From a bacterium (lineage in GTDB: Bacteria > BMS3Abin14), in contig JARGFV010000018.1 in the NCBI GenBank assembly GCA_029210545.1, forward strand, positions 1-32,762: a DNA stretch of 32,762 nt, given 5' to 3'. The position numbers were made by a program, and so were the translations under genes. Below the pieces are notes generated by a model. The model ran no database searches, was not told the origin of the DNA, and saw only the letters and a program-made list of their open reading frames with translations. Shown one piece after another: positions 211-19,650 of the stretch. Position 1 is the stretch's first letter. Each line of letters opens with the position of its first letter.

Positions 211-247
211 GGAATATTTGAGATATTCCTTTCATCTCAAATATTCC
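211..247 (-). terminator. Hairpin at the 3' end of the cytochrome gene
   Basis: A perfect 14-bp inverted repeat (211-224 with 234-247, 9-base loop) straddles the stop codon of the multihaem cytochrome. It is AT-rich and has no long U tract, so it may protect the mRNA 3' end rather than act as a classical intrinsic terminator. Confidence 0.4.
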
Positions 248-2604
248 TTCACGGTGTGGCAGTTGGTCCTGCACTCTCCGCCGTTGTCAATTTTTTTAAA
301 TTCGATCTTGAGGTTGTAGGCTGTGTTGAAGGGCACCTCCCGGTTGAGTAGGTGGGCCTGGTCCGATGAGTGAGAATCGTGGCAGACCCAGCAGGAAAAA
401 CCGCGCTCACCATCGCGTACGACGTGGAGGTTGTGAAGGTTCCACCGGTTCTGCCGGAAACCGGTGTCGGTCTCGGTGTACTTGACCTGGACCAGACCTG
501 GGGAGTGGCATGAAAAACAGAGCTCGTAGGACTCAGGATCGTAAGGGACATACTTCGTGTTCGAGAAAACCTGTTTGGTGAAGGGCGGCTCACCGGAGTG
601 GTTGGTGTGGCACACGGTGCATTCATCCCCTGAGACGGGGGCGTGGATCGTCCTCTCCCTTTCGAGTTTTCGCGCGATGTCCCGGTGACATTCCAGGCAG
701 TCATCACGCCCTGTCGATTCTTCGTGCTGGACCGATGCTATCGATCCGGCACTGTGGGGATCGTGACACTCCAGGCACCTGCCCAGGGAGGGGGTGCCGT
801 GGGAGACGCTCCTGTCAGATATGTCCGGGTGACACGATTGGCAGGCGAGGGGAGGCATCACGGGGGGATCTGCGTGGGGATCGTGGCAATGGCCGCACTC
901 AAACTCACTGAGGGCGGAGTGGACATAGGGCCCGGAGCGCTTTTCCGAATGGCAGCTGGGGCAGCTCCTGTCCCCTAGGACCCTCAGGAGACCTTTCCTG
1001 GAAGATGCATGGGGTTCATGGCATGAGCCGCACTCTTCGTCAAGTACCGTATCCCCGTGTTTTCCCCAACGTTTTTCATCGTGGCATTGAAGGCAAAGGT
1101 CGGGGATCCCTGTCGTCAGGAGGTTGCCCTGCCCGCTGGTGTGAGTGTCGTGGCAGGCGTCGCACCCTTCCTCCAGGGCGGCGTGCCGGAACAGGCCTTC
1201 TGTGGTGCCTCCTGTGATATCCGTGTGACAATCGGTGCACTGCGTCGTCGGTACCGGCGGTTCGACGTGGGGGGCATGGCACTGGTCACAGCCGGCGGAT
1301 CTGACCGGTGTGTGGACAACCTTTCCCTCGGATTGTGAACGGTGACAGGTACTGCAGCTGGCCTTTTCCTTCAGCATGGTGAGCAGTTTGGGCTGCAGGG
1401 CGCTGTGAGGATCGTGGCAGCTCCCGCATTCCGTCGACAGGAGTATATCCCCGTGACGCCCGCCCTCCATCTCCCCGTGACAGTCGGTGCACAGTTCCGG
1501 GACCAGGGCCGTGAGGTTGTCGGGGAGGCTGGAACCGTGGGCGTCGTGACAGTTGCCGCACCCTTCCAGGGCTGCTTCATGATCGTACCGTCCGTCCAGG
1601 ATCCCCCCGTGACAGTCTTGGCACAGGGCTATGGGCACAGGGGGCCGGGTATGGGGATCGTGGCACCGCTGACACCTGTTGGTGCTCACCGGAGTGTGGG
1701 GAACCTCCTTGAGGACGATCTCCACGTGACATGCAGCGCATTGTCCCCGACGAACCGAATCGGTGAGGAGGCCGGGCGCCTCCGAGGAATGAGGCGTGTG
1801 ACACCGGGTGCAGCCCAGGCCAACCGACATCTTCCCGTGCCTGCCGGCGGACATCTCGTCATGACACCCGAGACACAGGTCCGGGAGGCTCTCATTGAGC
1901 TGCATCGGCTCCTGGCCGGAGTGTGACATGTGACAGGCAGCGCACCCCTCTTCCATCGCTTCGTGGACCAGAGCGCCACCCAGGAGATCCGAGTGACACT
2001 GGAGGCAGGGGAGGGTGGCTAAGGGAGGCGAGGAGTGGGGGTTGTGGCACTCAGGACACCCGCTCTCCTTCACGGCCGTGTGAACGAATGCCTCTTCCGT
2101 GATCACCTGGTGACAGGTCACGCAATCTCCCTTGGCAACTCCTTTAAGCAGGTATTTTACCCCGGATGCGTGGGGATCGTGGCACCGTGTGCAATCACCC
2201 TCGAAGACAGCCTCTCCGTGCCGGCCGCCCTCTTTCTTCTTATGGCAGCCGGTACACAGCGGCACCGTGGAACGCTTCGTAAGGCCGGGCCGGGAGGAAG
2301 AGTGCGGATAGTGGCACGCCATGCACTGACCTTCACCTGCCGGGCTGTGGAGGTAGGGTTTGCCGGAGGCAGGGTTATCGTGACATTCGAAACAGAGAAG
2401 GGGGACCGGTTGGGCCAGCTGCCCGGGAGCCTCGGGGAAGTGCATCCCGTGGCAAACCGTACACTCCCCGGTGGCAACGGGTTCGTGAACATATCGGTCC
2501 TCGAAGAGCTTTTTGTGGCGATACTGGGCCCACGACGTCACAGCAAGGGACAGGATCAGGAGGATCAGGACGGGGATGATGGAAAACTTTTTAGCCGAAA
2601 ACAT
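232..2604 (-). CDS. Exported 32-haem c-type cytochrome made of hexahaem repeats
   Basis: This is a very large multihaem cytochrome c, probably periplasmic or extracellular, for long-range electron transfer. From the chosen ATG it is 790 residues with an N-terminal signal sequence (about residues 1-27, hydrophobic core then SWAQ). I count 31 CXXCH motifs plus a final C-X3-CH, CRTNCH. Many are followed by DPH or a similar Asp-X-His, which would supply distal haem ligands. Hexahaem units of about 127-132 residues start at each GG-RHG or KHG signature (about residues 128, 255, 383 and 515). They are preceded by a four-haem partial unit and followed by a four-haem C-terminal module. There is no C-terminal membrane anchor. 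A GTG start lies 24 bases upstream, but it overlaps a good promoter-like sequence, so I prefer the ATG at 2604. The haem count is read directly; the cellular role is inference. Confidence 0.93.
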   Translation of the reverse strand: MFSAKKFSIIPVLILLILSLAVTSWAQYRHKKLFEDRYVHEPVATGECTVCHGMHFPEAPGQLAQPVPLLCFECHDNPASGKPYLHSPAGEGQCMACHYPHSSSRPGLTKRSTVPLCTGCHKKKEGGRHGEAVFEGDCTRCHDPHASGVKYLLKGVAKGDCVTCHQVITEEAFVHTAVKESGCPECHNPHSSPPLATLPCLQCHSDLLGGALVHEAMEEGCAACHMSHSGQEPMQLNESLPDLCLGCHDEMSAGRHGKMSVGLGCTRCHTPHSSEAPGLLTDSVRRGQCAACHVEIVLKEVPHTPVSTNRCQRCHDPHTRPPVPIALCQDCHGGILDGRYDHEAALEGCGNCHDAHGSSLPDNLTALVPELCTDCHGEMEGGRHGDILLSTECGSCHDPHSALQPKLLTMLKEKASCSTCHRSQSEGKVVHTPVRSAGCDQCHAPHVEPPVPTTQCTDCHTDITGGTTEGLFRHAALEEGCDACHDTHTSGQGNLLTTGIPDLCLQCHDEKRWGKHGDTVLDEECGSCHEPHASSRKGLLRVLGDRSCPSCHSEKRSGPYVHSALSEFECGHCHDPHADPPVMPPLACQSCHPDISDRSVSHGTPSLGRCLECHDPHSAGSIASVQHEESTGRDDCLECHRDIARKLERERTIHAPVSGDECTVCHTNHSGEPPFTKQVFSNTKYVPYDPESYELCFSCHSPGLVQVKYTETDTGFRQNRWNLHNLHVVRDGERGFSCWVCHDSHSSDQAHLLNREVPFNTAYNLKIEFKKIDNGGECRTNCHTVKEYLR

Positions 2605-2651
2605 CCAGGTATCTCTATAACGACACACCCGGCGGTGTCAACCGTTGATGG
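2605..2651 (-). promoter_or_regulatory. Sigma-70-like promoter of the cytochrome gene
   Basis: On the minus strand TTGACA is followed after 16 bases by TATAGA. Only 9 bases separate the -10 box from the ATG at 2604, which would give an almost leaderless transcript. No convincing Shine-Dalgarno sequence precedes that ATG, only a GAG about 8 bases upstream. Confidence 0.45.
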
Positions 2652-6247: not shown

Positions 6248-6691
6248 ATGGCCAAGATCAAACCACTCAGGCAGAGCAAGATCTTTTCCTCTCTCACCGA
6301 CAGGGAGCTGGCGCTCTTTTCCAGGATCGTCAGTGAAGAGAAGTACATCCAGGATACGGTTCTCGTGGCGGAGAACATGAGATCGGACAAGTTTTATCTC
6401 ATCGAGAAGGGGCAGATCAGCGTCGATACGGGAGGGATCGAAGCGGGTTGTCAACTGGTCCTTGGCGATGGCGATTCCTTCGGTGAATGGTCCCTGCTGG
6501 CACCGCCCCACCTGACTTCGGTGTCAGCCAGAGTCACCCGGGAATCGCAGGTCCTCGTGCTGGAAAAAGAGGACTTCGACAAGTTTGCCGAAGGGGAGCC
6601 GGCCATAGCCCTGAAGATCCTGCGGGGTATAGTCGGCAGCGTCTGGTCTTCCATAAAGGATGTGGAGAGGATTTTAAAAGAAAGTCTGTAA
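6248..6691 (+). CDS. Stand-alone cyclic-nucleotide-binding-like (Crp-type sensor) domain protein
   Basis: The 147-residue protein is a cNMP-binding beta-roll with C-terminal helices and no DNA-binding helix-turn-helix. The fold signature is clear: SLTDRELALFSRIVSEEKY, then FYLIEKGQISV, GDGDSFGEWSLL and a closing KILRGIVGSVWSSI helix. The phosphate-binding cassette is altered. After FGEWSLL comes PPHLTSV, where cyclic-nucleotide binders normally have Arg followed by Ser or Thr and Ala. Binding of cAMP or cGMP is therefore doubtful, and the domain may sense another ligand or act as a partner module. GGAG lies 5-8 bases before the ATG. It converges on the HEAT-repeat gene. Confidence 0.85.
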   Translation: MAKIKPLRQSKIFSSLTDRELALFSRIVSEEKYIQDTVLVAENMRSDKFYLIEKGQISVDTGGIEAGCQLVLGDGDSFGEWSLLAPPHLTSVSARVTRESQVLVLEKEDFDKFAEGEPAIALKILRGIVGSVWSSIKDVERILKESL

Positions 6692-6936: not shown

Positions 6937-7938
6937 TTATTCTACGAGTCGATACCGATCCCCGATGCGTTCCATCACGATGCCCCGTCTGCTCAGCGCC
7001 TGATGAGCCAGTTCCCGGATCCCTCTCCTGTCGTCGGCAAGCAGTTCGGCTACCGCCCCGGCATCGTTTTTTTTCAGATGGTTCGAAAGGGCCTTCATGC
7101 ACTCGAACCTCACCCTCTTGTCCGGATCCTTCAGTCCGTCGATAAATGCCTGGTAGATGGCAGTCGTGAGCCGCAGGTTCGCCAGGGCCTCGGCACTGCG
7201 GTACCGGACGATATCCGAATCATCGAACAAAAGGGTGCGGACCAGGGCATCTTCCCCGCTCTGGGAACCGATACGGCCCAGGGCCCTGGCGGCCAATGAG
7301 CGGACGGTGTCATCCGGGTCGCCTTCCAGGGTCGAGATGAGCTTTGCAGAGGCTTTTTCATCGGCCATGAGCCCGAGGGCTTCGGCCGCCGTTCCGCGCA
7401 CCTCGTCGGGATATTTGTGAGCTAAAAACTTCATCACCGTCGTGGTGGAGGAGTGGTCCTGGAGCCGTCCCAGGCTTCGGATACATCGCGCCAGCAGCAT
7501 CATGTCCTTTGTGGACTGGATGGTGTTGGCGAGGAAGATGGACGAGGTGGATTTGATGCCGACGTCGCCCAGTGCGCCGGCGCTGGCAAGGCGTACCTCC
7601 CTGTCCTTGTCGAGAACGAGGGTTTTTTCAAGGATTTTTGAGGCTCGTGAGTCCCCGCGATACCACAGGGCGCCAACTGCCTGCAGACGGATGAGGGGGT
7701 TGGGGTCTTCCTCCACCATTTTGAGAAGGATATTCAGCGATTCCGATTCCTTGTAAGGCTTGATCGCCTGGACTGCGGAAAGCCGCACGGACTCATCTCC
7801 GGACTGGAGGTCGTCCAGGAGGCTTTCGGGGTAGGGGAGAGCGGCGAGGCCATTCGAGGCGGCCATTGCATGGTGCAAGGGGTGCAAAAATGCGCAGATT
7901 GCCGCGATAATAATTGTTAGTTTGATCAGGTTTCTCAT
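6937..7938 (-). CDS. Exported HEAT-repeat protein, last gene of the envelope-machine cluster
   Basis: The 333-residue protein has a signal peptide (MRNLIKLTIIIAAICAFLHP, cleavage near AMA) followed by about eight HEAT/PBS-lyase-like repeats of 30-36 residues. A typical unit is VRLQAVGAL or VRLASAGALGDVG with a preceding D. HEAT solenoids are protein-binding scaffolds and show no catalytic motif here. The product should be periplasmic. The frame stays open upstream to an ATG at 8004 (with GGAG 5 bases before it) and a TTG at 8019. That extension would put 22 or more odd residues before the signal peptide and is made of direct-repeat-like noncoding sequence, so I chose the ATG at 7938. It is preceded 92 bases upstream by the AgmX-like gene on the same strand. 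Confidence 0.85.
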   Translation of the reverse strand: MRNLIKLTIIIAAICAFLHPLHHAMAASNGLAALPYPESLLDDLQSGDESVRLSAVQAIKPYKESESLNILLKMVEEDPNPLIRLQAVGALWYRGDSRASKILEKTLVLDKDREVRLASAGALGDVGIKSTSSIFLANTIQSTKDMMLLARCIRSLGRLQDHSSTTTVMKFLAHKYPDEVRGTAAEALGLMADEKASAKLISTLEGDPDDTVRSLAARALGRIGSQSGEDALVRTLLFDDSDIVRYRSAEALANLRLTTAIYQAFIDGLKDPDKRVRFECMKALSNHLKKNDAGAVAELLADDRRGIRELAHQALSRRGIVMERIGDRYRLVE

Positions 7939-8030
7939 GGCCTCGCTTCGTATGTCCGTACGTCCGTAAAGCGTATATGCGAAAGACCTTACGCACCTAC
8001 GCATGCACTCTCCACGCAACCACGTGCTCC

Positions 8031-9464
8031 TTACATGCTCGGGAAAAATACTAACGGGTAGCTCACCGTCACAACACCCTCCGGGATTTCCGGGAACTTC
8101 CAGGTTTTGACCATCTTCACGAGGGATTCCTCGAGGGGCGGCCAGTCCATGGCAGACTCTTCAATGCGGCATTCGGTTACCTGACCCTCCGGGGAGATTG
8201 TAAAGGTGAGCACCACCTTGCCCCGCAGGGAGGGGTTCTTGCGAAGCTCCCTGTTGTAGGCGTAGCGGATGGCACCTGTGTGGGCGGCCACGATCCTTGC
8301 AATGGCCCTGTTGGAACGCTCTTCTCTGAGCTCGGGCGGGACATATTCCTCTCCTGCTCCCGTCCCGGTACCGTCTCCAGAACCGTCACCGATGCCGGGA
8401 GGCCCTTCCGGCACTCTCCCTATGCTGGAGACCTGCACCGGTCCGGAGACCCCGGAATCACTGATCTGTCCGTCGATACCGATAAGCCCGCTCCCCGGCT
8501 CGGCCCTTCCGAACCCCGCGCCGGCCCCGGTCCCGGCGATAGCCGCGCTGGTCGTAATCCCGCTGATCTCCCCCAGGACACTGTCGAGTTCCTGCTGCAG
8601 TTCGGCGTCAAGCTGCAGGACCGAAATGCCCCTCCCGGCAGTGGTCCTGCCGGCGGTGCCCCGCCCGGTGAGAACGCCCAGCACTCCCATCCTGGTTACC
8701 TGGCTGCGGATAGCCTCCCGTGTCGCCGGGGCGGGAGTTCCTCCTGGCGGAGGCGTTTTAGCCGGAGTTTCTTCAGCTGCGGCTTGCTCTGTGCGCTCAG
8801 GTTCCGGGGTTTTTTCCTCGGCGCCTGGCCCGCTTTTATCACCCGCCTTCGTGATCCGGGATGGCTGCGGGACAGTCGGCTCAAGGATCAGCCGCGATAT
8901 GCGTCTGGGCATTTCCCGCAAGGTGCTGACATCCGGGATGTGGTAGTCCCGAAGGCCTCTTACAGCGAGGACCTGGGCTATCAGGATCACGGTGAGCAGG
9001 GTCAGGAAGGTGAAATCGGAGGTGTGAGGCATCTGGAGACGATATTTGACTGGTACGTGACCCGTGGATACCGTTTCCGTAAACGGCATCGGCTTGCTGA
9101 TCTCGGCCTGGTCGAAAACGAGGGTGGCGTTTCTGGTGAAGACCCTGCCGGTCATCCCCTTGCGGTAGCGGATCCGGTAACCGTTTTTCGATCTGGAGAG
9201 GACCCCCCAGACGGCCATGTCGCTGATGGAAAGTGTGGCCCCCTTGTAGGTGAAAGTCCCCTCCGCGTCCGGCGGAAGATAGATATGGGTCCGGAAAAGG
9301 GAGCGGACCAGGAGACGGGACCTGTTTTTTTCACTTCCCGGATCCACGATCTGGCACTTCCAGTCGTGACCCATGTATACGGTGCGGCCGGTCATCGGCG
9401 CGATGGTTTCCGGGTGACCTTCCCTGAGGAGCCTTATGACGAGGGACTTGCGGGCCAAAGTCAC
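8031..9464 (-). CDS. AgmX/GltG-like TonB-type transducer
   Basis: The 477-residue protein spans the inner membrane once (about residues 151-169, FTFLTLLTVILIAQVL). The N-terminal 145 residues form a cytoplasmic beta-rich domain, with GMTGRVFTRNATLVFDQ resembling the end of the N-terminal domain of AgmX-type proteins. A Pro/Gly/Ala/Glu-rich periplasmic linker follows (about 180-380). The C-terminal 90 residues match the AgmX/PglI (TonB-like) domain: RIVAAHTGAIRYAYNREL, then GKVVLTFTISPEGQVTEC and MVKTWKFPE. By analogy it couples the ExbB/ExbD motor to periplasmic or outer-membrane partners. The cysteines usual in this domain (as in RxCYE) are not at the expected places. The GTG start overlaps the preceding exbD stop; a TTG at 9458 has better spacing from AAGGAG and is an alternative. 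Confidence 0.85.
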   Translation of the reverse strand: MTLARKSLVIRLLREGHPETIAPMTGRTVYMGHDWKCQIVDPGSEKNRSRLLVRSLFRTHIYLPPDAEGTFTYKGATLSISDMAVWGVLSRSKNGYRIRYRKGMTGRVFTRNATLVFDQAEISKPMPFTETVSTGHVPVKYRLQMPHTSDFTFLTLLTVILIAQVLAVRGLRDYHIPDVSTLREMPRRISRLILEPTVPQPSRITKAGDKSGPGAEEKTPEPERTEQAAAEETPAKTPPPGGTPAPATREAIRSQVTRMGVLGVLTGRGTAGRTTAGRGISVLQLDAELQQELDSVLGEISGITTSAAIAGTGAGAGFGRAEPGSGLIGIDGQISDSGVSGPVQVSSIGRVPEGPPGIGDGSGDGTGTGAGEEYVPPELREERSNRAIARIVAAHTGAIRYAYNRELRKNPSLRGKVVLTFTISPEGQVTECRIEESAMDWPPLEESLVKMVKTWKFPEIPEGVVTVSYPLVFFPSM

Positions 9465-9961
9465 TCCTTCTGGTAGACGGCCAGTGACTGGTTGATGAAC
9501 CCGGCCTGGCCGCAGGTGTACAGGATCTTTTTCAGGAACCGGAACGGAACGTCCCTGTCACCCTCCAGGACCAGCTGCCCCGTGAATCCGGCGTTGGGGT
9601 TCAGCGACGATATCTGTTCATACTGCGCGGCCTTGATCATGAGATACTCGTAAAGTTCCTCGATGAGAAGCTCATCCGAGCGCTGAACCGACTTCAGGTC
9701 AACGTCCAGGAAACGACCGTCCACCACCAGACTGTTCATGGACACCTCAACAACGAGACCGGGCTCGGGAGCGTTCCGGGTTGTCGAGTAGGGGATGTGA
9801 AGCTCAGCCGGTATGGGGAGAATGATCCCCTCCGCGGAATAGCTTTTGAGGAGAAAGATGATGAGAATGGTGAACATGTCCAGCATGGAGGTGATGTTCA
9901 GGACCAGGAGGGAGGGCCTGCGGCTCCGCTGCATCCTTCTTTTCGTTGGGGCGTAAGCCAC
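9461..9961 (-). CDS. ExbD/TolR-type stator protein 1 (with conserved Asp)
   Basis: This inner-membrane biopolymer-transport protein has a short cytoplasmic basic N-terminus (KRRMQRSRRP). One membrane helix (about 20-40) carries Asp28 in NITSMLDMFTILIIFLL, the position that carries the proton in ExbD/TolR/MotB relatives. A 125-residue periplasmic domain follows, with QLVLEGDRDVPFRFLKKIL typical of the ExbD fold. Length 166 is slightly above the family's usual 135-145. The GTG start lies 2 bases after the second exbD gene, with GGAGG about 9 bases upstream. It is translationally coupled to both neighbours. Confidence 0.92.
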   Translation of the reverse strand: MAYAPTKRRMQRSRRPSLLVLNITSMLDMFTILIIFLLKSYSAEGIILPIPAELHIPYSTTRNAPEPGLVVEVSMNSLVVDGRFLDVDLKSVQRSDELLIEELYEYLMIKAAQYEQISSLNPNAGFTGQLVLEGDRDVPFRFLKKILYTCGQAGFINQSLAVYQKE

Positions 9962-9963
9962 GG

Positions 9964-10452
9964 TCAGCCTTCCTCCACGATCCGGTCAGCGAGGGAGATG
10001 TCGGGGAAAAGCTCCTCTTCGTCCAGGATCCGGATAGCATCCATGATTTCGATGATGATCTCGTAACGTATCTGGCTGTCGAGGAGCAGCACGGCGTCCC
10101 GCTTTTCCGGCACCTCTTTTTTCAGCTCGGCCAGCTTCCCGGTCAGCTTTGTGAGCTTGAGCCCCCCCTCGATATTTTCGGTAAGGAGAACCTCATCGTC
10201 CCTCAGGAGGGAGATCTCGGTGGTTGTGACGGCCACGGCGAGGGTGAAATCGGTATCTGGATCTTCCTGACTATCCTGGAGCAGGGCCTCCTCCATGGTG
10301 GGCAGGTACAGGTTGATGATAACCACCTGCTGGAACATGGCCGTGAGCAGCAGCATGGGGATAAGGGCGACGAAAAGGCTCAACAAGGGCGCCAGGTTGA
10401 GGTCCAGGATGTAGCTGGGCCTCGTTCGCCTCTGGGAGGGACGAAAGGCCAC
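9964..10452 (-). CDS. ExbD/TolR-type stator protein 2 (Asp replaced by Ser)
   Basis: This second, divergent ExbD-like protein has 162 residues. It has a basic N-terminus, one membrane helix (about 17-40, LDLNLAPLLSLFVALIPMLLL), a periplasmic domain and the family signature near the C-terminus (AVLLLDSQIRYEIIIEIMDAI). Aligning N-x-x-P-x-x-D of the family to NLAPLLS puts Ser25 where the proton-carrying Asp should be; the only nearby acid is Asp17 at the membrane edge. It may therefore be a structural partner to the Asp-bearing paralogue. The GTG start abuts the stop codon of the ExbB-like gene with no gap. Confidence 0.88.
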   Translation of the reverse strand: MAFRPSQRRTRPSYILDLNLAPLLSLFVALIPMLLLTAMFQQVVIINLYLPTMEEALLQDSQEDPDTDFTLAVAVTTTEISLLRDDEVLLTENIEGGLKLTKLTGKLAELKKEVPEKRDAVLLLDSQIRYEIIIEIMDAIRILDEEELFPDISLADRIVEEG

Positions 10453-11079
10453 CTAGACAACCTTGACGTCGGTGGAAACCATGTTCACCATCTTGACGGC
10501 CACCCTGTCCACCTGCTCCACGAGGTTGTTGGCTCTGGACTGGATGAACGCGTAGAAAAAAAGACAGGGGATGGCCACGGTCAGGCCGTAAGCGGTGGTG
10601 TTCAGGGCGATGGCGATACCTTTGGCCAGGATGGCCCCTTTCTGTGCTGCCTCTGCCCCGGCCACGGCGTTGAATGATTGCATGAGGCCGATGATGGTTC
10701 CCAGGAGGCCCAGGAGGGTGGCCACGTTGGCTGCCATGGCAAGGTAATGGACCCTTCGCTCCACCAGGGGGAGAACCTCCATGGCGGCCTCGTCGACGGC
10801 GTTCTGGACCTCCCTGACTGAACTGCCGAAGCTTTTCAGGGCCGCCTTGACGACCTTGGGAACCGGAGTTTCGTCACACAGTTTGATGGCGCCGTCCACA
10901 TCACCGCCGTGCACCAGGTCAACGATCTTCCCGAGAAAGGCTCTGTCGTTGATGCCATAACGGATTGCGAGGAAATAGATCCTCTCGATGATGATGGCGA
11001 AGGCGAAAACAGAGGTGGCAAGGATGGGGTACATAAAAGGTCCGCCGTCCCTGAATGCCTGTGCGATCAAAGCGATCAT
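10453..11079 (-). CDS. ExbB/TolQ/AglR-type proton-channel protein
   Basis: This is the inner-membrane channel subunit that works with ExbD-type proteins to convert proton flow into motion or pulling force. The 208 residues contain three membrane helices at about 14-36, 113-135 (LAMAANVATLLGLLGTIIGL) and 155-180 (AIALNTTAYGLTVAIPCLFF). The Thr161-Thr162 region and the GLLGTIIG motif are hallmark residues. The frame is open for another 92 codons upstream, but that stretch is Arg/His/Pro-rich shadow over the next gene. The ATG at 11079 has a strong GGGAGG 8 bases upstream, so it is the true start. It leads the motor part of the cluster. Confidence 0.94.
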   Translation of the reverse strand: MIALIAQAFRDGGPFMYPILATSVFAFAIIIERIYFLAIRYGINDRAFLGKIVDLVHGGDVDGAIKLCDETPVPKVVKAALKSFGSSVREVQNAVDEAAMEVLPLVERRVHYLAMAANVATLLGLLGTIIGLMQSFNAVAGAEAAQKGAILAKGIAIALNTTAYGLTVAIPCLFFYAFIQSRANNLVEQVDRVAVKMVNMVSTDVKVV

Positions 11080-11099
11080 GATGGATACCTCCCGCGGCC

Positions 11100-11381
11100 T
11101 CAGGGGCCGACGATGAGGGCCCTGGTCCTTACTTCGCGTTCCAGGGCCATGGGGTTCGTGTACTGTGTCGCTTCTCCGGAAAAATCCCGTTCCAGGGGGA
11201 TCTGGCTGAACCGGATCCTCGTCTTGGGGATGATATACGTGATCTCGGGATGCTCCACGACCCCGATGATCTCGGTCTCTTCCATCCTGATATATGTTCT
11301 GGGCCTGGCATCCTCTGCGATGACGGGTGCGGCCGGAAACAGCAATATCAGGCATATCATGGGAAAGGTCAATGTTCGCAT
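11100..11381 (-). CDS. Small exported protein of unknown function
   Basis: The 93-residue product has a clear signal peptide (cleavage near VIAEDA, about residue 22) and a 70-residue mature part with no domain I can name. It contains EETEIIGVVEHPEITYIIPKT and a mixed charged tail. The ATG has GGGAG 6 bases upstream, and the gene ends 20 bases before the ExbB start, so it belongs to the motor operon. Its position directly ahead of the channel gene suggests a periplasmic accessory of the machine. No function is claimed. Confidence 0.75.
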   Translation of the reverse strand: MRTLTFPMICLILLFPAAPVIAEDARPRTYIRMEETEIIGVVEHPEITYIIPKTRIRFSQIPLERDFSGEATQYTNPMALEREVRTRALIVGP

Positions 11382-11402
11382 GGAGAACTCCCTATTACTA
11401 AA

Positions 11403-11466
11403 GTAACCGGTAACCAGATATTTCTTGAGCGCCGTTTATTTAAATTTACCCGTTTTTCACGATCCT
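11403..11466 (-). promoter_or_regulatory. Gap that may hold an internal promoter for the motor genes
   Basis: The 185-base gap splits the cluster into a TPR half and a motor half. On the minus strand it holds an AT-rich stretch (AAATTTAAATAAA, about 11432-11446) that could supply a -10 region, but I see no good -35 box. Two GTAACC-type heptamers lie at 11403-11416. Confidence 0.25.
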
Positions 11467-11499
11467 CGATCGGTACTCAAAAGGTCCTGGTACCGGGTC

Positions 11500-12696
<1,197 letters not shown>

Positions 12697-12700
<4 letters not shown>

Positions 12701-15645
12701 TCCAGGCGCTCCCCCACGGGCCGGACCTCTGTGACAGCGCCGCCTTTATAGCCGCCGGTTTTAAGCTCCCCGGCCGGCATGGGGAGTTGCAGGGGTGGCG
12801 GTGAGATCAGGGTAGAGGGATAGGCCACGGCCTCGTCACGCTGGTAGGCCCACGGGGCCAGTTCCGCCATCCTCTCGTAGGTCTTCTCGATCCATGGGTC
12901 CAGCATCTCGAGAGTCACGGAGCGCTTGATGTTCACACGGTAGGCGTTCAGAGCCTTCTCCTCGAAGGGGAACGCCATCTCCTGGAGCAGAAGATCATAT
13001 TCTTCCCGCGCCTCCTGGTCCAGGCCAGGTGGAACAGGGGAGGCCAGGATATCTTCCTTGAATAGTTCGAGAGCCCGTCCGATGAAGAAGTTGGAGGCGG
13101 TGATGACATCGGAGGTCCTGTAGTTTCCGGCTGCCACGAACTCACGGATCACTGCCTGGAGCAGCTCCCGTTTCCTGACGACGGTATCCTCCACCGGCGG
13201 GCCGATATGGTAGGCATCGTACTCCTCGAAGGAACGCTCGGCGATACGAAGCTGGCTTCTGGCCGCAAAGGCGGTGACGTCCTGCTCACCGGGGTTGTCC
13301 TTCTGAAGCTGAACGTTGTCAAGGTATGCGGTCTTCGCGTCTGCCCACATGCCGAGGGTTTCGAGATCCCGCCCCAGGAGGTAAAGTTCCCGGGACCGTT
13401 CGCCGACAGGCTCGGGGTAAAGGGTCAGGTATTCGGATCGGGCCGACGCGGCCCTGGCTGGATCGTTGCCTCCCGAGTACAGCTGGGCTGCCTTGAGGAG
13501 TGCCGCGGCCTTTTCCTTCCCCTCCGAGCGTGCCGCCAGGGCCATGCTGTCCTCGGCCGCCTTGAGGGGGTCTCCCAGGGCTTCCAGGATGAGTACTGAC
13601 ATCTGGAGAGCTTCACTGGCGAACTCCGACTCGGTGTAGCTGGCTGCCAGGGTCTCGAACAGGTTGGTGGCTTTCCTTTCAAGCCCCATGTTCCGGTAGA
13701 GCTTGCCGGCGTTATAAAGGGATACCTGGGCAACATCCGAATCGGGGAACTGCCGGTGGATGGCTTCAAACCTCTCGGCGGCCTCGGTGAACTCTCCCTT
13801 TTCCGACAGCTCCTCGGCATATTTGAAGAGGCTGTACACGTGCAGACGACGGGCCTCGGCCCCTTCACCCGTGTCAGGTGACTTTCGCCACGATTCGCGG
13901 AACCAGGCTGCCGCCTGCCTGTAATCCGCGGCCTTGAAGAAGGTGCGGGCGATGTGGAGCCTGGCTTTCCCCGACTCTTCGGATTCCGGATAATCCCTGA
14001 TGACTCTGGAAAAGTGCGACCTCGCACCGGTCAGATCCCCCGTGTTGAGAGTGATCTCTCCCAGGGCGAGAATCGCCCTGGAGGTCGCGGGGTTCTCGGG
14101 TGCCACCCCGGAAAGGATGTCCACCGACCTTCCGAAAAGGGGCAGTTCAACGATCCCGGACTCCTCGAAAGCGGATATCTGGAAAGCCACCGAGGCGAGG
14201 ATGGCGCCCTGAGCCATATCACCGCACTCACCGTCCTCGGCGATCTCGTTCAGTGTCAGGGGGGCGTCAGGAAAACGATCCAGTTCCGTGAGAACGGTAC
14301 CTTTCAGATACCGGACCAGGCAAGGGACCCCCGCGGGGCCAGCGACCCGTTCGTAGGCGACGAGGTCGTCGAGGGCTGTATCCAGTTCTGCCTCCCGGCC
14401 CCCGGTCTGGGCCCTTGCCCGTCGTCTCCGGGCGGACGTCTCCAGGTTGCTCAGAATGGTGGTCCGAATCTGGCTGCGGCGTTCATCCCGGGCGCTGACG
14501 TACCAGGCGGTCCCGGGACCCACATATTCGAGGAGCGCTTCGGAAAGTTCCAGGGAGGCAAGGGTATCCCCGCGTATGTGGTAGGTTTCCCTGAGGTGGC
14601 CCAGGACCTCGGGGAGGTCCGAACCGGCGGGGTAAAGGTCCACGTAGGTCCGGTAGGTTCCCACTGCCTCGGGGAAGAAGGACCTCTCCCGGTAAAGATC
14701 GGCGAGTTTCTTGAGCAGGAGGGGGGAATAGGAATCCTCGCTCCGCTTCTGGATCCGGCGCACGAGCCCCGGTGTGCCGCCGCTTTCCGAAAAGGATCTG
14801 ACGATGATGTCCATGCTCTCGTTGACAAGGCTGTCCGCCGAGATTCTCCCGCCGCTGTTGAGGTCGAGGACCTTGAAAAAGGCGTCGATGCCCGCCTGGT
14901 AATTATCCAGGTTGTAGTAGCACCATCCAAGTTTATAAAGTGCCTTCTCGACGTACTCGGGCTCTCCTGTCGCGACGACGTATCCGTAATGGGTGATGGC
15001 CTGCTGCAGGTCCTCCATTGTGAAAAAATATTCCCCGAGGCGCATGTGGATCTCCACGGAATACCGGGTAGCCGGGTATGCCTCGATAAGCCTGGAATAT
15101 CCTTCAGCTGCTTCATCGGGGTAACCCTGCTCCGTGTAGCAGTAGGCTATTCCGTAGAGAGCGTCCTCGGTGAGGGGATGGTTCGGGAAACTCTCGATCA
15201 TCCGGCGGTAGGCCGCGATCGCCTGGGTAAAGTCGGGTACGATGGCTGTCGTTTCCCCCTGAGTCTCGAGGACCATGCGGATCCGCTCCCGTTCGTTCTC
15301 GAAGAGGAGTTCAGCGAGGCGGAAGGCTGCCTCGGCCATGAAATCGTTGTGGCTGTCCGGGAACTGCTCGAGGAGGGAACGGTACAGTTCCACGGATCGA
15401 AGCCGCGATTCGGTCTCCTGTCGCACCAGGAATTCCCGTCCCCCCTTCTGGGCCTGTCTGACGAGCCGTGAAAGCTGGGTCTTGTCCTGCTTTTTCATGC
15501 GGTCCATCTCCAGGAGGAGACGGGCTTCCCGCTCCCTTGGAGAAAGATGGGGGCCTGTTTCACGAGGGGCAGGAGATGAAACGCATCCACCCAGGTGCGT
15601 CCCAAAAAGCAACAGGCCCGAGATCAGGAGAACAGCCTTTTTCAC
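12697..15645 (-). CDS. Large TPR-repeat lipoprotein
   Basis: The 982-residue lipoprotein has a canonical lipobox LGGC (Cys21). Almost the whole mature protein is a chain of TPR or TPR-like helical hairpins. Examples are EDALYGIAYCYTEQGYPDEA, YKLGWCYYNLDNYQAGIDAF and ARLHIARTFFKAADYRQAA, with BamD/YbgF-like spacing. It should form a long superhelical scaffold anchored to a membrane. The tail is Pro/Gly-rich. Comparable large TPR proteins occur in myxobacterial Glt/Nfs clusters, but I cannot assign orthology. Start and stop overlap both neighbours by 4 bases, so it is cotranslated with them. Confidence 0.9.
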
Positions 15646-17627
15646 TGGACGGCCTCCTGCAGTGCCTGGACTGTGCTCTCCATTCTCGATATCTCGATGT
15701 TCGCCGCTGTGTAAATGGTCCGTGCCTCTGCTTCATTCAGTTCCCGGGCCTTGGCGGATGCGAGCAGGAGCAGCTTTTCGGCTCTCATGGTGGCGATGCG
15801 GCCAGAAAACCGGTCGATCTTCTCCTGCAGGGTCCCGGTCAGGCTGCTCCGACCCTCCTCCAGTCTGGCTGCCAACTCCTCCAGCCTGTTGCGATGCTCC
15901 TCCAGAAGCCCCCGTGCCTTCGTCGATTCGGCGAGGGCCTGTCCCGCACGGGTCTGGGCCGAGGTGGTTCGCAGGAAGGTTCTTTTCTCGAGCCTGTTCG
16001 CCTCGTTCTTGAGGGCGAGCCAGACCTGCCCCTGGAGCCCCACCAGGGATTCCCGGTGATCGCGCAGGTTGCGGCGTGATGAGATGAGTCCTTCGTACGC
16101 CTGCTGCCGGACCTTGTTCAGCTGGCCTTCCTTCGGTGAAGTGGTCACCGCATCGGACAGGCTGCTGACGAGAGAAGAGAATCCTTCCGCCTTTTTAACG
16201 GAGTTTTCCATTATGGAGAGTCGTTCGATCAACCCTTCGATCCTGGTGAGCAGGGCGGAACTGGATTCGGAGCCGAAGCGGCTCAGGGAAGAGTTTTGAA
16301 GGGAACGTCCCGTCTCCTGGTTCAGTGCCGGCAGCCGCTCCCGGATCCTCTCGAGGCGTGCGGTCCTGGCCCGGTTGAGTGCCAGATCCTCATCTGTCCG
16401 ATCGAGCTCTTTCCGGACGAGGACGCTGTCGGCCTCGAACCGCTGAGCAAGTTTGTCAGCCTTGCGAGAAGCGATTCGGGCCCCTTCCAGCAACGCTGTG
16501 GTCTGAACGACGTAGGGGTCGCTTGTGACCTCCTGCAGCCAGAACCTCGCAAAGGCCGGAGTCCTGGAGAGCAGGTCCGGTTCGACCTGGCGACCGTCGA
16601 GGAGATGTTCCAGAAGAACGGTGAGGTCGCGGTCACGGAGCAGATCCTTTTCATTGAGGCTGGTAAGCCAGTTCCTGACCTCGCGCAACTTTCTGACCTG
16701 CCGGTCCAGTAGGGCGCCGGCCCTGTCGTAGAGTCCGAGATCCCGGTAACAAAGGGCCAGATCCAGCGCCCCCTCGACGGCGGCGTGGCTGTCACCATGA
16801 AGGTCGACAAGCTCTTCCAGCCTTAAAGTGGCGCCCTGGATATCGTCCAGGCGGATGAGTGACCAGGCGTGCCCGAAAAGGGATTCGGGCGCGTATGGGC
16901 TCGAGGGAGGAACGGCCAGAAACGCCTCCTTGGCTGCGCCGTATTTGCCGGCCTGAAGGTTGTGATAGCCCTTGACCAGGGAAAGCATGTCCGTGAGGGG
17001 AGATGTTTCATCAAGACGGATGCGGGAAACCTTCTTTGCCGAAAGCTCCCAACCCGCCGAGGATGCCAGATAACTTGCAGAAGCGATGGCGGAAAGGACT
17101 TTCAGCTCAGGATCTTCGATTTTTGTACCGCCGAGCAGCTTGAAAGCCAGTTCACGGTCGCCGCTATCACCAAGGAAACCTGCCAGATCCAACAGGGTCT
17201 GTTCATCGAGGCCGGCAAGGGGGACGCCGGTGATGTCAGGTATCGGTGCTTCCGGCAAATATGGAGAAACGCTGACGTACTGGCGCAGGGCAAGCTGCCA
17301 CAGACTCGAGCCGGGTTGGCTCAGCTCCAACGCCCTGAGGAACGACCGGCCTGCCTGATGGAAGCGCCCCACCGACCGGAGGGCTGTCCCCAACAAGTAC
17401 TGGTCATGGGCACCGGCGGCGTCCCCGGCGGGGACGAGGGCGATCACGGAAAGGGGGTCCTGGAGGATAAAATGGGTGGTCAGAAGCCGTTCCCTGAGGT
17501 GTTGATCGGACGTACGGACGAGCCTGTCCGGCCAAAGGTCGGCGCAGCGGGCGTGGCCGGGGATGAAAATTATGCTAACCGACAGGACCGCAGCGAAAAC
17601 GCTCGATCCCTTCAGCAGGCGTCTCAT
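15642..17627 (-). CDS. Exported TPR plus coiled-coil protein
   Basis: The 661-residue protein has a signal peptide (cleavage near ARCAD, about residue 28). A helical TPR-like part covers about 70-330 (for example YLLGTALRSVGRFHQAGRSF and GHAWSLIRLDDIQGA). A long charged coiled-coil region follows, about 390-661 (KADKLAQRFEADSVLVRKEL, EEHRNRLEELAARLEEGRSS). It has no catalytic motif and no membrane anchor apart from the signal. It could span or line the periplasm as a rod between the inner-membrane motor and the outer-membrane lipoproteins. GGGAG precedes the ATG by 9 bases, and the gap to the upstream gene is 3 bases. Confidence 0.82.
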   Translation of the reverse strand: MRRLLKGSSVFAAVLSVSIIFIPGHARCADLWPDRLVRTSDQHLRERLLTTHFILQDPLSVIALVPAGDAAGAHDQYLLGTALRSVGRFHQAGRSFLRALELSQPGSSLWQLALRQYVSVSPYLPEAPIPDITGVPLAGLDEQTLLDLAGFLGDSGDRELAFKLLGGTKIEDPELKVLSAIASASYLASSAGWELSAKKVSRIRLDETSPLTDMLSLVKGYHNLQAGKYGAAKEAFLAVPPSSPYAPESLFGHAWSLIRLDDIQGATLRLEELVDLHGDSHAAVEGALDLALCYRDLGLYDRAGALLDRQVRKLREVRNWLTSLNEKDLLRDRDLTVLLEHLLDGRQVEPDLLSRTPAFARFWLQEVTSDPYVVQTTALLEGARIASRKADKLAQRFEADSVLVRKELDRTDEDLALNRARTARLERIRERLPALNQETGRSLQNSSLSRFGSESSSALLTRIEGLIERLSIMENSVKKAEGFSSLVSSLSDAVTTSPKEGQLNKVRQQAYEGLISSRRNLRDHRESLVGLQGQVWLALKNEANRLEKRTFLRTTSAQTRAGQALAESTKARGLLEEHRNRLEELAARLEEGRSSLTGTLQEKIDRFSGRIATMRAEKLLLLASAKARELNEAEARTIYTAANIEISRMESTVQALQEAVQ

Positions 17628-17630
17628 CGA

Positions 17631-18209
17631 TCAGGGCTCCCTGGACCAGGAACGGGCGTTCATCCTGTAACCGGTCGGTTTTTTGGACAACTCTTCCGAC
17701 AGGGTGATCTCGAGGAAATTGGCGGCGGCACGCATGGCATCGAACTTGAAGCTTGTTTTCCCGGTACTCACAACCTCCTGGACGGGTGTGCTTAAGACCA
17801 GGAAACACTCCACAGTGATGATGTGGGAGGAAGGGTCGACGATGCCGGCGTGCACCTCTAAAGCACCCCCGCGAACGAGGACGAGCCTGTCTGTTTCCTC
17901 GAATTCACGGCTTGCGAGAGGGTTGCCGTCCAGTGTCAACTGGATGGAGGCCGGGACCTTGCCCCTGAGCGGCTGGGAGGCGAAGAAAACGGAAAGAGAG
18001 GTGAGCTTGGGATCGACCAGGTCCTCCAGCATGACGTCGATCTGCTTTTCTAGAACGGACAGGTCCTTCTCGATATCTGCCAGCTCTCCTTCGAGTTCCT
18101 CAACCGGGGCTGGAGCCCCGCCGGTATCATCCGGGTGGGCTTCCGGTACCAGACCTGCAGACAGCAGGAGTATTATGAAAGAGCAGATCGCAACAGTTTT
18201 TCTGAACAT
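17631..18209 (-). CDS. Small exported protein with coiled coil and beta domain
   Basis: The 192-residue protein has a signal peptide (about residues 1-26). An acidic coiled coil follows (about 36-64, EELEGELADIEKDLSVLEKQ), then a beta-rich domain from about 70 to 170 (KLTSLSVFFASQPLRGKVPA onward). I do not recognise the family. The ATG has GGAGGG about 4 bases upstream, and the gene starts 13 bases after the OmpA-like gene ends. The coiled coil may pair with the long coiled coil of the next gene product; this is inference. Confidence 0.75.
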   Translation of the reverse strand: MFRKTVAICSFIILLLSAGLVPEAHPDDTGGAPAPVEELEGELADIEKDLSVLEKQIDVMLEDLVDPKLTSLSVFFASQPLRGKVPASIQLTLDGNPLASREFEETDRLVLVRGGALEVHAGIVDPSSHIITVECFLVLSTPVQEVVSTGKTSFKFDAMRAAANFLEITLSEELSKKPTGYRMNARSWSREP

Positions 18210-18222
18210 GCTTCCCTCCGCT

Positions 18223-19650
18223 TCAATCGGGCAGGAACGCTCCCTCCGGCAGACTGATACGCGCTACAAACCAGTCTTCTACAGCACCTGGTCCCATCTC
18301 CATGGGACCGAACACGCGGGTGATCCTTCTGGCCGGTTCGGTCGGGTAGAGAACAACGGTCAACTGGGCCTGTGCCGCCTTGCTCTCGGGAGAATGATGG
18401 TAACGAGCAACAATATCATAGATGCCCTGCGAGACCCTCGTCATACTGAAGACCTCCGGGCCAAAACCGTCCTTGTCGTCCAGGTCCAGGGCGCCTTCCG
18501 GGATGGCTTCACTGCTCTCGGGAGGGTCAAGCGCCCCGTAATAGGTGTGTTGATCGTCGGGACCGTAGATGTGCAGGTCCAGGTCGACACCCGGCTGGTC
18601 CCATATCAGGTAGACCACCATTTCCTTGGGTGCGAGATTGATCGTTGAAACGGTGATGTCCTCGCTGGTATCCGTTGTTCCGTAGATATCGACCGCTTCG
18701 ACACGGATCCGGTTGTTCCTGCGAATGAGGACCACCGGTTGGGAGAAGTTACCCTCTTCGTCCACTTCGATCCTGTGCGGGGCTCCGTTGAGGAAAAGGA
18801 AGGTTTCCGACAGGGTGGTCTGGGCCTCGATCTTGCCCGTCACGCCGATCACCGGTGAATGGGTGGTATCGAAAACCTGGCCGTCCCTTGGGGTGTTGAT
18901 CCTGATCTCCGGCGGCGGTGGAACGTAACTGACCGCGACCTCATCCTTTCCGAAGGCGCCGCTGTCATCCCATGCCATGACCTCTATGGTGTTATCGCCC
19001 CGTTCGAGGACCACCTCCGTATCGATCCTCGATTCCTGGACGGCGATGAGGCTGGATATGCCGTTGATGGTCAGGAGGGCCGTCTGGGAACTCCCCTCTA
19101 CGATGGCCTTGACCTTCTGATATGCACGGTCGACCGTACCGGGGGCAGGTTCGAGGATGAGGACGTTCTTACCCAGGACCTTTCTCGGTGCCTGGGTCTG
19201 GACCTTGGCGGCAGCGGGATCGCCGATTCCGACGAGAACACGGCGGTTGGGGGCCTGGCTTTCGAAGCTGCCCGCGGAAACCACCGGGGTTGTCTCGCCC
19301 CTGGAATCCACGAGGAGACGCTCGCGGGGAAAACCGAACCTGTCCACCAGGTGGTCGGCGATCCGGGAAGCGTAGAAAAAACCGATGGCGAAGTTTTCCT
19401 GCTCGATTCCGAAGGTATCCGTGTGCCCCGTTACCGTGACTGTGACGGAAAGGTCCTTTTTCAGCTGTTGAACCATCTGTTGAAGGGTGGATTTTTCCTC
19501 CATCGAGACCTTGTCGGGATCCCAGTCAGCGGAAAGGGTGAGTGCGATCTGGATGGGGGCTGCGGCTGCCGGGACGAGGGAAAACTGTATCAACAGGATC
19601 AGGACGACTGGTATGATCAGGATGAGATGTACGGGGGCTTTTTGAAACAT
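18223..19650 (-). CDS. OmpA-like, Ig-like and YfaP/DUF2135-like surface-anchoring protein
   Basis: The 475-residue protein is the first gene of the cluster. An N-terminal signal or anchor helix covers about 8-30. A compact OmpA-C-like peptidoglycan-binding domain follows (about 32-142), with GHTD (75-78) and NRRV (135-138), the positions that bind diaminopimelate in OmpA. Two Ig-like beta-sandwich segments come next (about 165-355), with PPPPEIRINTPRDGQV between them. The C-terminal domain (from about 365) has VYLIWDQPGVDLDLHIYGPD, typical of the YfaP/DUF2135 group. It could tie the machine to the cell wall. On the minus strand TTGCCA, 17 bases and TAGAAA precede the ATG by only 6 bases, and no Shine-Dalgarno sequence is visible. 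Confidence 0.85.
   Translation of the reverse strand: MFQKAPVHLILIIPVVLILLIQFSLVPAAAAPIQIALTLSADWDPDKVSMEEKSTLQQMVQQLKKDLSVTVTVTGHTDTFGIEQENFAIGFFYASRIADHLVDRFGFPRERLLVDSRGETTPVVSAGSFESQAPNRRVLVGIGDPAAAKVQTQAPRKVLGKNVLILEPAPGTVDRAYQKVKAIVEGSSQTALLTINGISSLIAVQESRIDTEVVLERGDNTIEVMAWDDSGAFGKDEVAVSYVPPPPEIRINTPRDGQVFDTTHSPVIGVTGKIEAQTTLSETFLFLNGAPHRIEVDEEGNFSQPVVLIRRNNRIRVEAVDIYGTTDTSEDITVSTINLAPKEMVVYLIWDQPGVDLDLHIYGPDDQHTYYGALDPPESSEAIPEGALDLDDKDGFGPEVFSMTRVSQGIYDIVARYHHSPESKAAQAQLTVVLYPTEPARRITRVFGPMEMGPGAVEDWFVARISLPEGAFLPD

What the first reader, a model, noticed from the sequence alone, without database searches (positions are those of the whole stretch)
6937..19650. Eleven-gene Agl/Glt-like trans-envelope machine of unknown purpose
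Seen: one strand carries, in order, an OmpA-like/Ig-like/YfaP-like protein, two exported coiled-coil or TPR proteins, two TPR lipoproteins, a small exported protein, ExbB-type, two ExbD-type, AgmX-like TonB-type and HEAT-repeat proteins, mostly with overlapping or near-touching ends. Known: in Myxococcus, AglR/AglQ/AglS (one TolQ-like, two TolR-like) with Glt proteins (AgmX-type transducers, TPR proteins) drive gliding, and with Nfs proteins they assemble the spore coat. Inference: this is a complete single-locus relative with its own set of outer parts, possibly for polymer transport, surface motility or envelope maintenance. The full set, including the OmpA/YfaP hybrid and the HEAT protein, does not match any arrangement I know.
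Basis: partly seen in the sequence, partly recalled or inferred. Interest (0 to 1): 0.85.

Follow-up and report, generated by a model that had tools for sequence, protein, structure and literature searches.

The report
Eleven-gene Agl/Glt-type envelope motor operon
This is an eleven-gene proton-driven machine spanning the cell envelope of an uncultivated bacterium, built on the same core that powers gliding and spore-coat building in Myxococcus but with its own outer parts, and most likely used to move or arrange surface sugar polymers rather than to glide.

Summary
In detail: eleven collinear minus-strand genes at 6937-19650, tightly packed, with the block conserved in order in other genera of the same small phylum. 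It is neither Tol-Pal, which lies intact on another contig, nor an ordinary TonB set. Nine of the eleven genes form the 'core complex' of Agl/Glt/Nfs machines. Seven were described in 2011, function unknown (GltC, D, E, G and AglR/Q/S types); I add a GltF-family protein, formerly thought restricted to myxobacteria and Bdellovibrio, and a coiled-coil protein encoded just before GltC. GltG folds as FHA domain, membrane helix, flexible linker and TonB-type C-terminus. The OmpA/Ig/YfaP and HEAT proteins are additions of this phylum. Two results stand out. In core-type motors one of the two ExbDs has lost the proton-carrying aspartate (Ser or Asn in 13 families), while myxobacterial relatives keep both. 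In ten of 99 surveyed clusters a Wza-type exporter gene lies about 2-2.5 kb away (0.75 expected by chance), pointing to surface polysaccharide as cargo; the window's genome has such an exporter, but unlinked. Verdict: a new variant of a known kind; function inferred.

The parts
18223..19650 (-). OmpA-like domain, two Ig-like domains and a YfaP-like C-terminal domain, exported (475 aa); first gene of the operon; full-length relatives only in this phylum
   Evidence: PF00691 2.6e-12, PF09136 4.8e-10; orthologues 50-62% identical; genome-contig scan finds full-length relatives only in bin582, bin47 and SZUA-204; model with OprF/OmpA-like and tandem Ig folds; the arginine conserved in the genome's own Pal is Tyr here in all seven orthologues
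17631..18209 (-). exported coiled-coil plus beta-domain protein (192 aa), a widely conserved partner encoded just before GltC
   Evidence: orthologues in the phylum; homologues just before GltC in L067, L068, L069 (by synteny and alignment), L114 (E 2.5e-25), L117 (1.9e-6) and L149 (4.9e-6)
15642..17627 (-). GltC-type exported TPR/coiled-coil protein (661 aa)
   Evidence: GltC-type profile hits in myxobacterial-type clusters L111 (7.8e-29), L112, L126; same gene position; length as GltC (673 aa, PMC3169522)
12697..15645 (-). GltD-type TPR lipoprotein (982 aa)
   Evidence: profile matches GltD of the bona fide glt cluster L110 at 3.0e-151; lipobox-like LGGC near residue 21
11567..12700 (-). GltE-type TPR lipoprotein (377 aa)
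   Evidence: NF033758 gliding_GltE 7.6e-14, below the curated cut-off; profile matches GltE in L110 at 7.0e-64
11100..11381 (-). GltF-family small exported protein (93 aa)
   Evidence: profile finds the small ORF between GltE and GltG in the myxobacterial glt cluster L110 (5.0e-9) and in many other clusters; hhalign phylum vs core 97.6% and core vs myxobacterial GltF 96.9% probability
10453..11079 (-). ExbB/TolQ-type motor subunit, AglR type (208 aa)
   Evidence: PF01618 9.9e-29; in the tree the seven phylum rows form one group (99/99), apart from the genome's own TolQ and other ExbB
9964..10452 (-). ExbD-type subunit 1 (162 aa), with Ser in place of the proton-carrying Asp
   Evidence: PF02472 1.7e-7; alignment of 20 ExbD1 rows
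9461..9961 (-). ExbD-type subunit 2 (166 aa), with the transmembrane Asp
   Evidence: PF02472 4.3e-11; Asp invariant in all 19 aligned rows
8031..9464 (-). GltG-type force transducer (477 aa): FHA-fold N-terminus, one TM helix, Pro/Gly-rich linker, TonB/AgmX C-terminus
   Evidence: NF033768 3.1e-28; NF033760 gliding_GltG 1.2e-26, below its cut-off; AlphaFold model plus Foldseek: FHA (1r21, prob 1.00) and TonB CTD (6sly, prob 1.00)
6937..7938 (-). exported HEAT-repeat protein (333 aa), last gene
   Evidence: PF13646 2.1e-41; follows GltG in G002, G003 and G011

Best explanation
The locus encodes an Agl/Glt/Nfs-type trans-envelope machine. An ExbB ring around a pair of ExbD helices uses the proton gradient; GltG takes up the force with its membrane helix and carries it through a flexible periplasmic linker to a TonB-like tip; GltF, GltC, the coiled-coil protein and the TPR lipoproteins GltD and GltE relay it to the outer membrane. 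In place of the outer-membrane beta-barrel gene that accompanies many related clusters, this one has an OmpA/Ig/YfaP protein that probably touches the wall or surface material, and a HEAT protein acts as an extra periplasmic scaffold. The most likely job is to move, align or pack exported polysaccharide at the cell surface, as Agl-Nfs does for the Myxococcus spore coat. Shown: gene set, homology, predicted fold of GltG, conservation as a unit, loss of the Asp in one ExbD. Inferred: assembly, force path, cargo. That it is an Agl/Glt core-type machine I hold at about 0.92; that it handles surface polysaccharide at about 0.55, which is the confidence given.
For: Nine genes match the core complex by profile and order; GltG has FHA, TM and TonB folds; Luciano 2011 shows an AglR-GltG interaction by two-hybrid and describes the core (PMC3169522); Wartel 2013 shows Agl-Nfs-driven movement at the spore surface (PMC3858216). 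In 10 of 99 clusters, in seven families, a Poly_export (Wza-type) gene lies 1.9-2.5 kb from the cluster against 0.75 expected; in L122, L127 and L129 it sits with a Wzc-type tyrosine kinase gene, and in L122 and L127 also an outer-membrane beta-barrel gene. The window's genome has a Wza, beta-barrel, Wzc set on contig C58.
Against: The exporter is not linked to the locus in this phylum. G011 (98% complete) has the locus but no Poly_export gene, and G278 (one contig, 100% complete) has a related cluster and none. The Ig/YfaP domains have no known ligand.
Confidence: 0.55

Rival explanations
1. An envelope-maintenance or lipid-handling machine working like Tol-Pal: the motor pulls through GltG on outer-membrane lipoproteins to keep the outer membrane tied to the wall, with the OmpA-like protein as anchor.
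For: OmpA-like domain, TPR lipoproteins and a TonB-type tip resemble Tol-Pal parts; a second, diverged cluster in G008 carries a Pal-like protein next to the motor; no exporter gene in the 98% complete genome G011.
Against: The genome has a complete Tol-Pal set on contig C89 (TolQ, TolR, TolA, TolB, Pal); the OmpA-like domain has Tyr where Pal has the conserved Arg; in several other families the core is linked to polysaccharide export.
Confidence: 0.25
2. A surface gliding machine like that of Myxococcus.
For: Shares GltC, D, E, F, G families and an AglRQS-type motor with the gliding machine.
Against: No GltJ over cut-off in four genomes of the phylum, whereas the myxobacterial control scores 906 bits; no GltH, GltI, GltA, GltB or GltK candidates seen in the locus; the motor lacks the second Asp that the myxobacterial relatives keep; Luciano 2011 concluded that the core genes are not sufficient for motility (PMC3169522).
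Confidence: 0.12
3. An ordinary TonB or Tol system of the organism.
For: ExbB, ExbD and a TonB-type C-terminus are present.
Against: Tol-Pal is elsewhere (C89) and another ExbB/ExbD pair is on C4; the ExbB groups with AglR/core-type rows and apart from these two in the tree, though those two branches are long; GltG has an FHA domain and a long linker.
Confidence: 0.02

Closest known systems
Agl/Glt/Nfs 'core complex' (GltC, D, E, G and AglR, Q, S) of Geobacter and Gammaproteobacteria, Luciano et al. 2011 (PMC3169522)
   Same: Same seven gene families in one operon; no gliding-specific genes in the locus; function unknown in both.
   Different: Here with GltF, the coiled-coil protein, the OmpA/Ig/YfaP protein and the HEAT protein; in a phylum not among the groups named there. 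I could not read their supplementary figure, so whether their unnamed extra core gene equals the coiled-coil protein is not known.
Myxococcus Agl-Glt gliding machine
   Same: GltC-G families, AglRQS-type motor, FHA-TM-TonB GltG architecture.
   Different: No GltJ, no GltA/B/H/I/K seen; one ExbD lacks the Asp; the GltG N-terminus is of core type (hhalign 98.7% to core, 3% to myxobacterial N-termini).
Myxococcus Agl-Nfs spore-coat machine (PMC3858216)
   Same: Single-locus outer parts with an Agl-type motor, acting on exported polysaccharide; best functional analogy.
   Different: Nfs borrows its motor from elsewhere in the genome; here the motor is in the operon.
Tol-Pal
   Same: ExbB/ExbD-type motor, TonB/TolA-like transducer, OmpA-like protein.
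   Different: Separate, intact Tol-Pal in the same genome; two ExbDs; TPR proteins; no TolB in the locus.

Membership tests
Agl/Glt/Nfs core complex | GltD, GltE and GltC TPR proteins next to each other | tested here: met
   profile hits to the bona fide glt and related clusters, same order
Agl/Glt/Nfs core complex | one ExbB and two ExbD (AglRQS) in the unit | tested here: met
Agl/Glt/Nfs core complex | GltG: cytosolic FHA, TM, periplasmic linker, TonB-type end | tested here: met
   AlphaFold model and Foldseek; NCBIfam GltG model matched at 93.5 bits, below its 650-bit equivalog cut-off
Agl/Glt/Nfs core complex | physical complex driven by the proton gradient | not testable with these tools
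   needs an experiment
Myxococcus gliding machine (Agl-Glt) | GltJ (AgmX) equivalog | tested here: not met
   no hit over 450 bits in G000, G002, G003, G008; control G039 905.8 bits
Myxococcus gliding machine (Agl-Glt) | proton-carrying Asp in both ExbD-type subunits (AglQ and AglS) | tested here: not met
   Ser in ExbD1 of all phylum loci; Asp in both in G039, G186, G384 motors; the both-Asp statement for AglQ/S is in PMC9389320
Myxococcus gliding machine (Agl-Glt) | MglA-type GTPase control | tested here: inconclusive
   Pfam Arf is not specific enough
Tol-Pal | TolB, TolA and Pal with the motor genes | tested here: not met
   these are on contig C89 with their own TolQ/TolR

The most novel reading that the evidence does not exclude
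The core-type Agl machines run on an obligatorily asymmetric motor: ExbB around a heterodimer of ExbD1 and ExbD2 in which only ExbD2 can carry protons, so the motor has one proton-binding site where others have two, while the gliding machines of myxobacteria have both. In this phylum that motor drives an outer part without a beta-barrel gene, made of the OmpA/Ig/YfaP protein.
Probability: 0.35. Interest if true: 0.75.

Novelty: new variant of a known kind. Interest (0 to 1): 0.52.

Why it matters
The core complex has been known since 2011 without a function. This locus and its relatives give three handles on it: a fuller parts list (GltF and the coiled-coil protein belong to the core, against the 2011 view that GltF is restricted to Myxococcales and Bdellovibrionales), a statistical link to polysaccharide export, and a natural asymmetry in the motor. 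A 2022 review states that it is not known whether AglQ and AglS form hetero- or homodimers (PMC9389320); a subunit that has lost its proton residue in 13 families argues for a heterodimer and can be tested directly.

Tried and rejected
Tol-Pal or TonB identity: rejected by own-genome search. Full-length OmpA/Ig/YfaP relatives outside the phylum: none in the pattern-based genome-contig scan; the three weak hits (Gemmatimonadota, Thiotrichaceae, Flavobacteriaceae contigs) show no core genes in the DNA held. Naming the phylum: SZUA-204 is absent from the taxonomy copy and from the papers; left unnamed. MglA search with Pfam Arf: not specific. Direct hhalign of the GltG N-terminus with the myxobacterial FHA domain: 3% probability, no support; the structure search gave the FHA fold. 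Foldseek on the OmpA/Ig/YfaP model gave OmpA and Ig folds but nothing clear for the last domain; model confidence moderate, pLDDT 70. Promoter and terminator scan: too near chance to use.

Full report
What is there. On the minus strand of the window, between 19650 and 6937, lie eleven genes: an OmpA/Ig-like/YfaP-like protein, an exported coiled-coil protein, a GltC-type TPR/coiled-coil protein, GltD- and GltE-type TPR lipoproteins, a 93-residue exported protein, ExbB, two ExbDs, a TonB-type transducer and an exported HEAT-repeat protein. The longest ORFs in the mechanical list give wrong starts for ExbB (true start 11079) and HEAT (7938); the small gene is 11100-11381, in another frame than the ExbB over-extension. 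The genes on both sides run in the opposite direction (19794 onwards, and 6248-6691), so the block stands alone. The 185-bp gap before the small gene holds a 7-bp repeat array.

Is it a unit. The genome (G000, 2.72 Mb, 97.5% complete) belongs to a phylum with 12 genomes held, all in one family. All eleven genes in the same order occur in G002 and G003; G008 has ten up to its contig end; G011 has all eleven split over two contigs; G004 and G010 are partial. In G001, G006 and G004 the block is cut: in G001 parts of GltC, GltG and HEAT are joined, in G006 and G004 the front genes lie far from the rest. These may be losses, rearrangements or assembly errors; I could not tell.

What it is not. The genome's Tol-Pal set (TolQ, TolR, TolA, TolB, Pal) is on contig C89, and another ExbB/ExbD pair on C4. 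The window's ExbB falls among AglR/core-type sequences and apart from both (those two branches are long, so the exact placing is unsure).

What it is. Luciano et al. 2011 (PMC3169522) described a 'core complex' of GltC, GltD, GltE, GltG and AglR, Q, S, clustered in one region in Geobacter and in the non-Deltaproteobacteria that have it, of unknown function, with one more unnamed gene; Wartel et al. 2013 (PMC3858216) called it a basal transport machinery. Profiles built from the phylum's proteins and extended with distant relatives find the same gene string in many other families and in the bona fide myxobacterial glt cluster (L110, whose GltG scores 1033 bits on the NCBIfam GltG model): GltD 3.0e-151, GltE 7.0e-64, GltG 1.5e-62, and the small protein at 5.0e-9 exactly between GltE and GltG, the place of GltF. 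These E-values are for a nominal set of 1000 ORFs. Profile-profile comparison agrees: phylum to core 97.6%, core to myxobacterial GltF 96.9%, phylum directly to myxobacterial 85%. So the small protein is of the GltF family, which Luciano et al. had placed in the group restricted to Myxococcales and Bdellovibrionales. The coiled-coil protein has homologues directly before GltC in at least six other clusters.

GltG. Its N-terminal 120 residues match no Pfam family and align poorly with the myxobacterial FHA domain by sequence (3%), but well with the N-termini of other core-type GltGs (98.7%). The AlphaFold model (pLDDT about 90 for most of this part and for the C-terminus) matches FHA domains (Ki67 FHA, probability 1.00) and TonB C-terminal domains (probability 1.00), though Foldseek E-values are only 0.0017 and 0.0037. 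One helix at 148-172 is the membrane segment. This is the GltG architecture.

The motor. ExbD2 has the transmembrane Asp in all 19 aligned rows. ExbD1 has Ser in its place in every aligned locus of this phylum, and Asn in twelve further families and in the second, diverged cluster of G008; it has Asp in f21, f212 and in the myxobacterial-type motors of G039, G186 and G384. PMC9389320 says that AglQ and AglS are both predicted to have the Asp and that it is unknown whether they form hetero- or homodimers. The asymmetry is shown by sequence; that the pair forms a heterodimer with one proton site is my inference.

Cargo. In L122, L127 and L129 the genes after GltG encode a Wza-type outer-membrane export protein and a Wzc-type tyrosine kinase, with an outer-membrane beta-barrel between GltG and Wza in L122 and L127. 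Over 66 genomes with 99 clusters, ten clusters have a Poly_export gene within 5 kb, all at 1.9-2.5 kb, against 0.75 expected from uniform placement. The ten come from seven families, so they are not all independent. The link between capsule export and this motility machine is the subject of a 2015 review that I could see only as a citation (Agrebi et al., Nat Rev Microbiol 13:318), so I do not claim the link as new. In the window's genome a Wza, beta-barrel, Wzc set with a sugar-transferase gene is on contig C58, unlinked. Against a strict dependence: G011 and the one-contig genome G278 have the cluster and no Poly_export gene.

The lineage-specific parts. The OmpA/Ig/YfaP protein has full-length relatives only in this phylum in the scan made. 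Its OmpA-like domain fits OprF and OmpA structures, but the Arg that the genome's own Pal keeps is Tyr in all seven orthologues, while the Asp is kept; from general knowledge these two residues bind peptidoglycan in OmpA, so wall binding of the usual kind is doubtful. The tandem Ig domains resemble adhesin and glycan-enzyme Ig modules, which is weak evidence as Ig folds are common. The HEAT protein follows GltG in G002, G003 and G011; no other lineage examined has it there.

Verdict. A real, conserved operon; a variant of the known Agl/Glt/Nfs core complex with two phylum-specific parts. It probably works like Agl-Nfs, but it is not a member of the gliding machine: GltJ is absent and the motor differs. 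Function in polymer handling about 0.55, envelope maintenance 0.25, gliding 0.12.

Noticed in passing
window 11500-11572: Ten copies of a 7-bp repeat (CTGTCTA) in the gap between the GltE- and GltF-type genes; not found in the five relatives' loci checked.
   Followed up: partly
L144 (G008 contig C30) 4496-19998: A second, diverged complete cluster in a genome of the same phylum: large OmpA-containing protein, coiled-coil protein, GltC, D, E, F, ExbB, two ExbDs, GltG, then a second ExbB and a Pal-like protein.
   Followed up: partly
L034 (G006), L036 (G001), L039/L071 (G004): The operon is cut or internally deleted in three genomes of the phylum, at different points; true losses or assembly faults.
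   Followed up: partly
L114 and L127 (G371 contig C2): Two clusters directly side by side in one genome: one without motor genes, one with motor and Wza/Wzc.
   Followed up: partly
window 232-2628: Exported multihaem protein with many CXXCH motifs (Paired_CXXCH_1, 14 stretches); another such gene lies beside the ExbB/ExbD pair on contig C4 (L131 341-2344).
   Followed up: no
L145 (G000 contig C58) 6329-13369: Wza-type protein, outer-membrane beta-barrel, Wzc and CpsD-type proteins, a NusG-like protein and a sugar transferase: the likely exopolysaccharide locus of the window's genome.
   Followed up: partly
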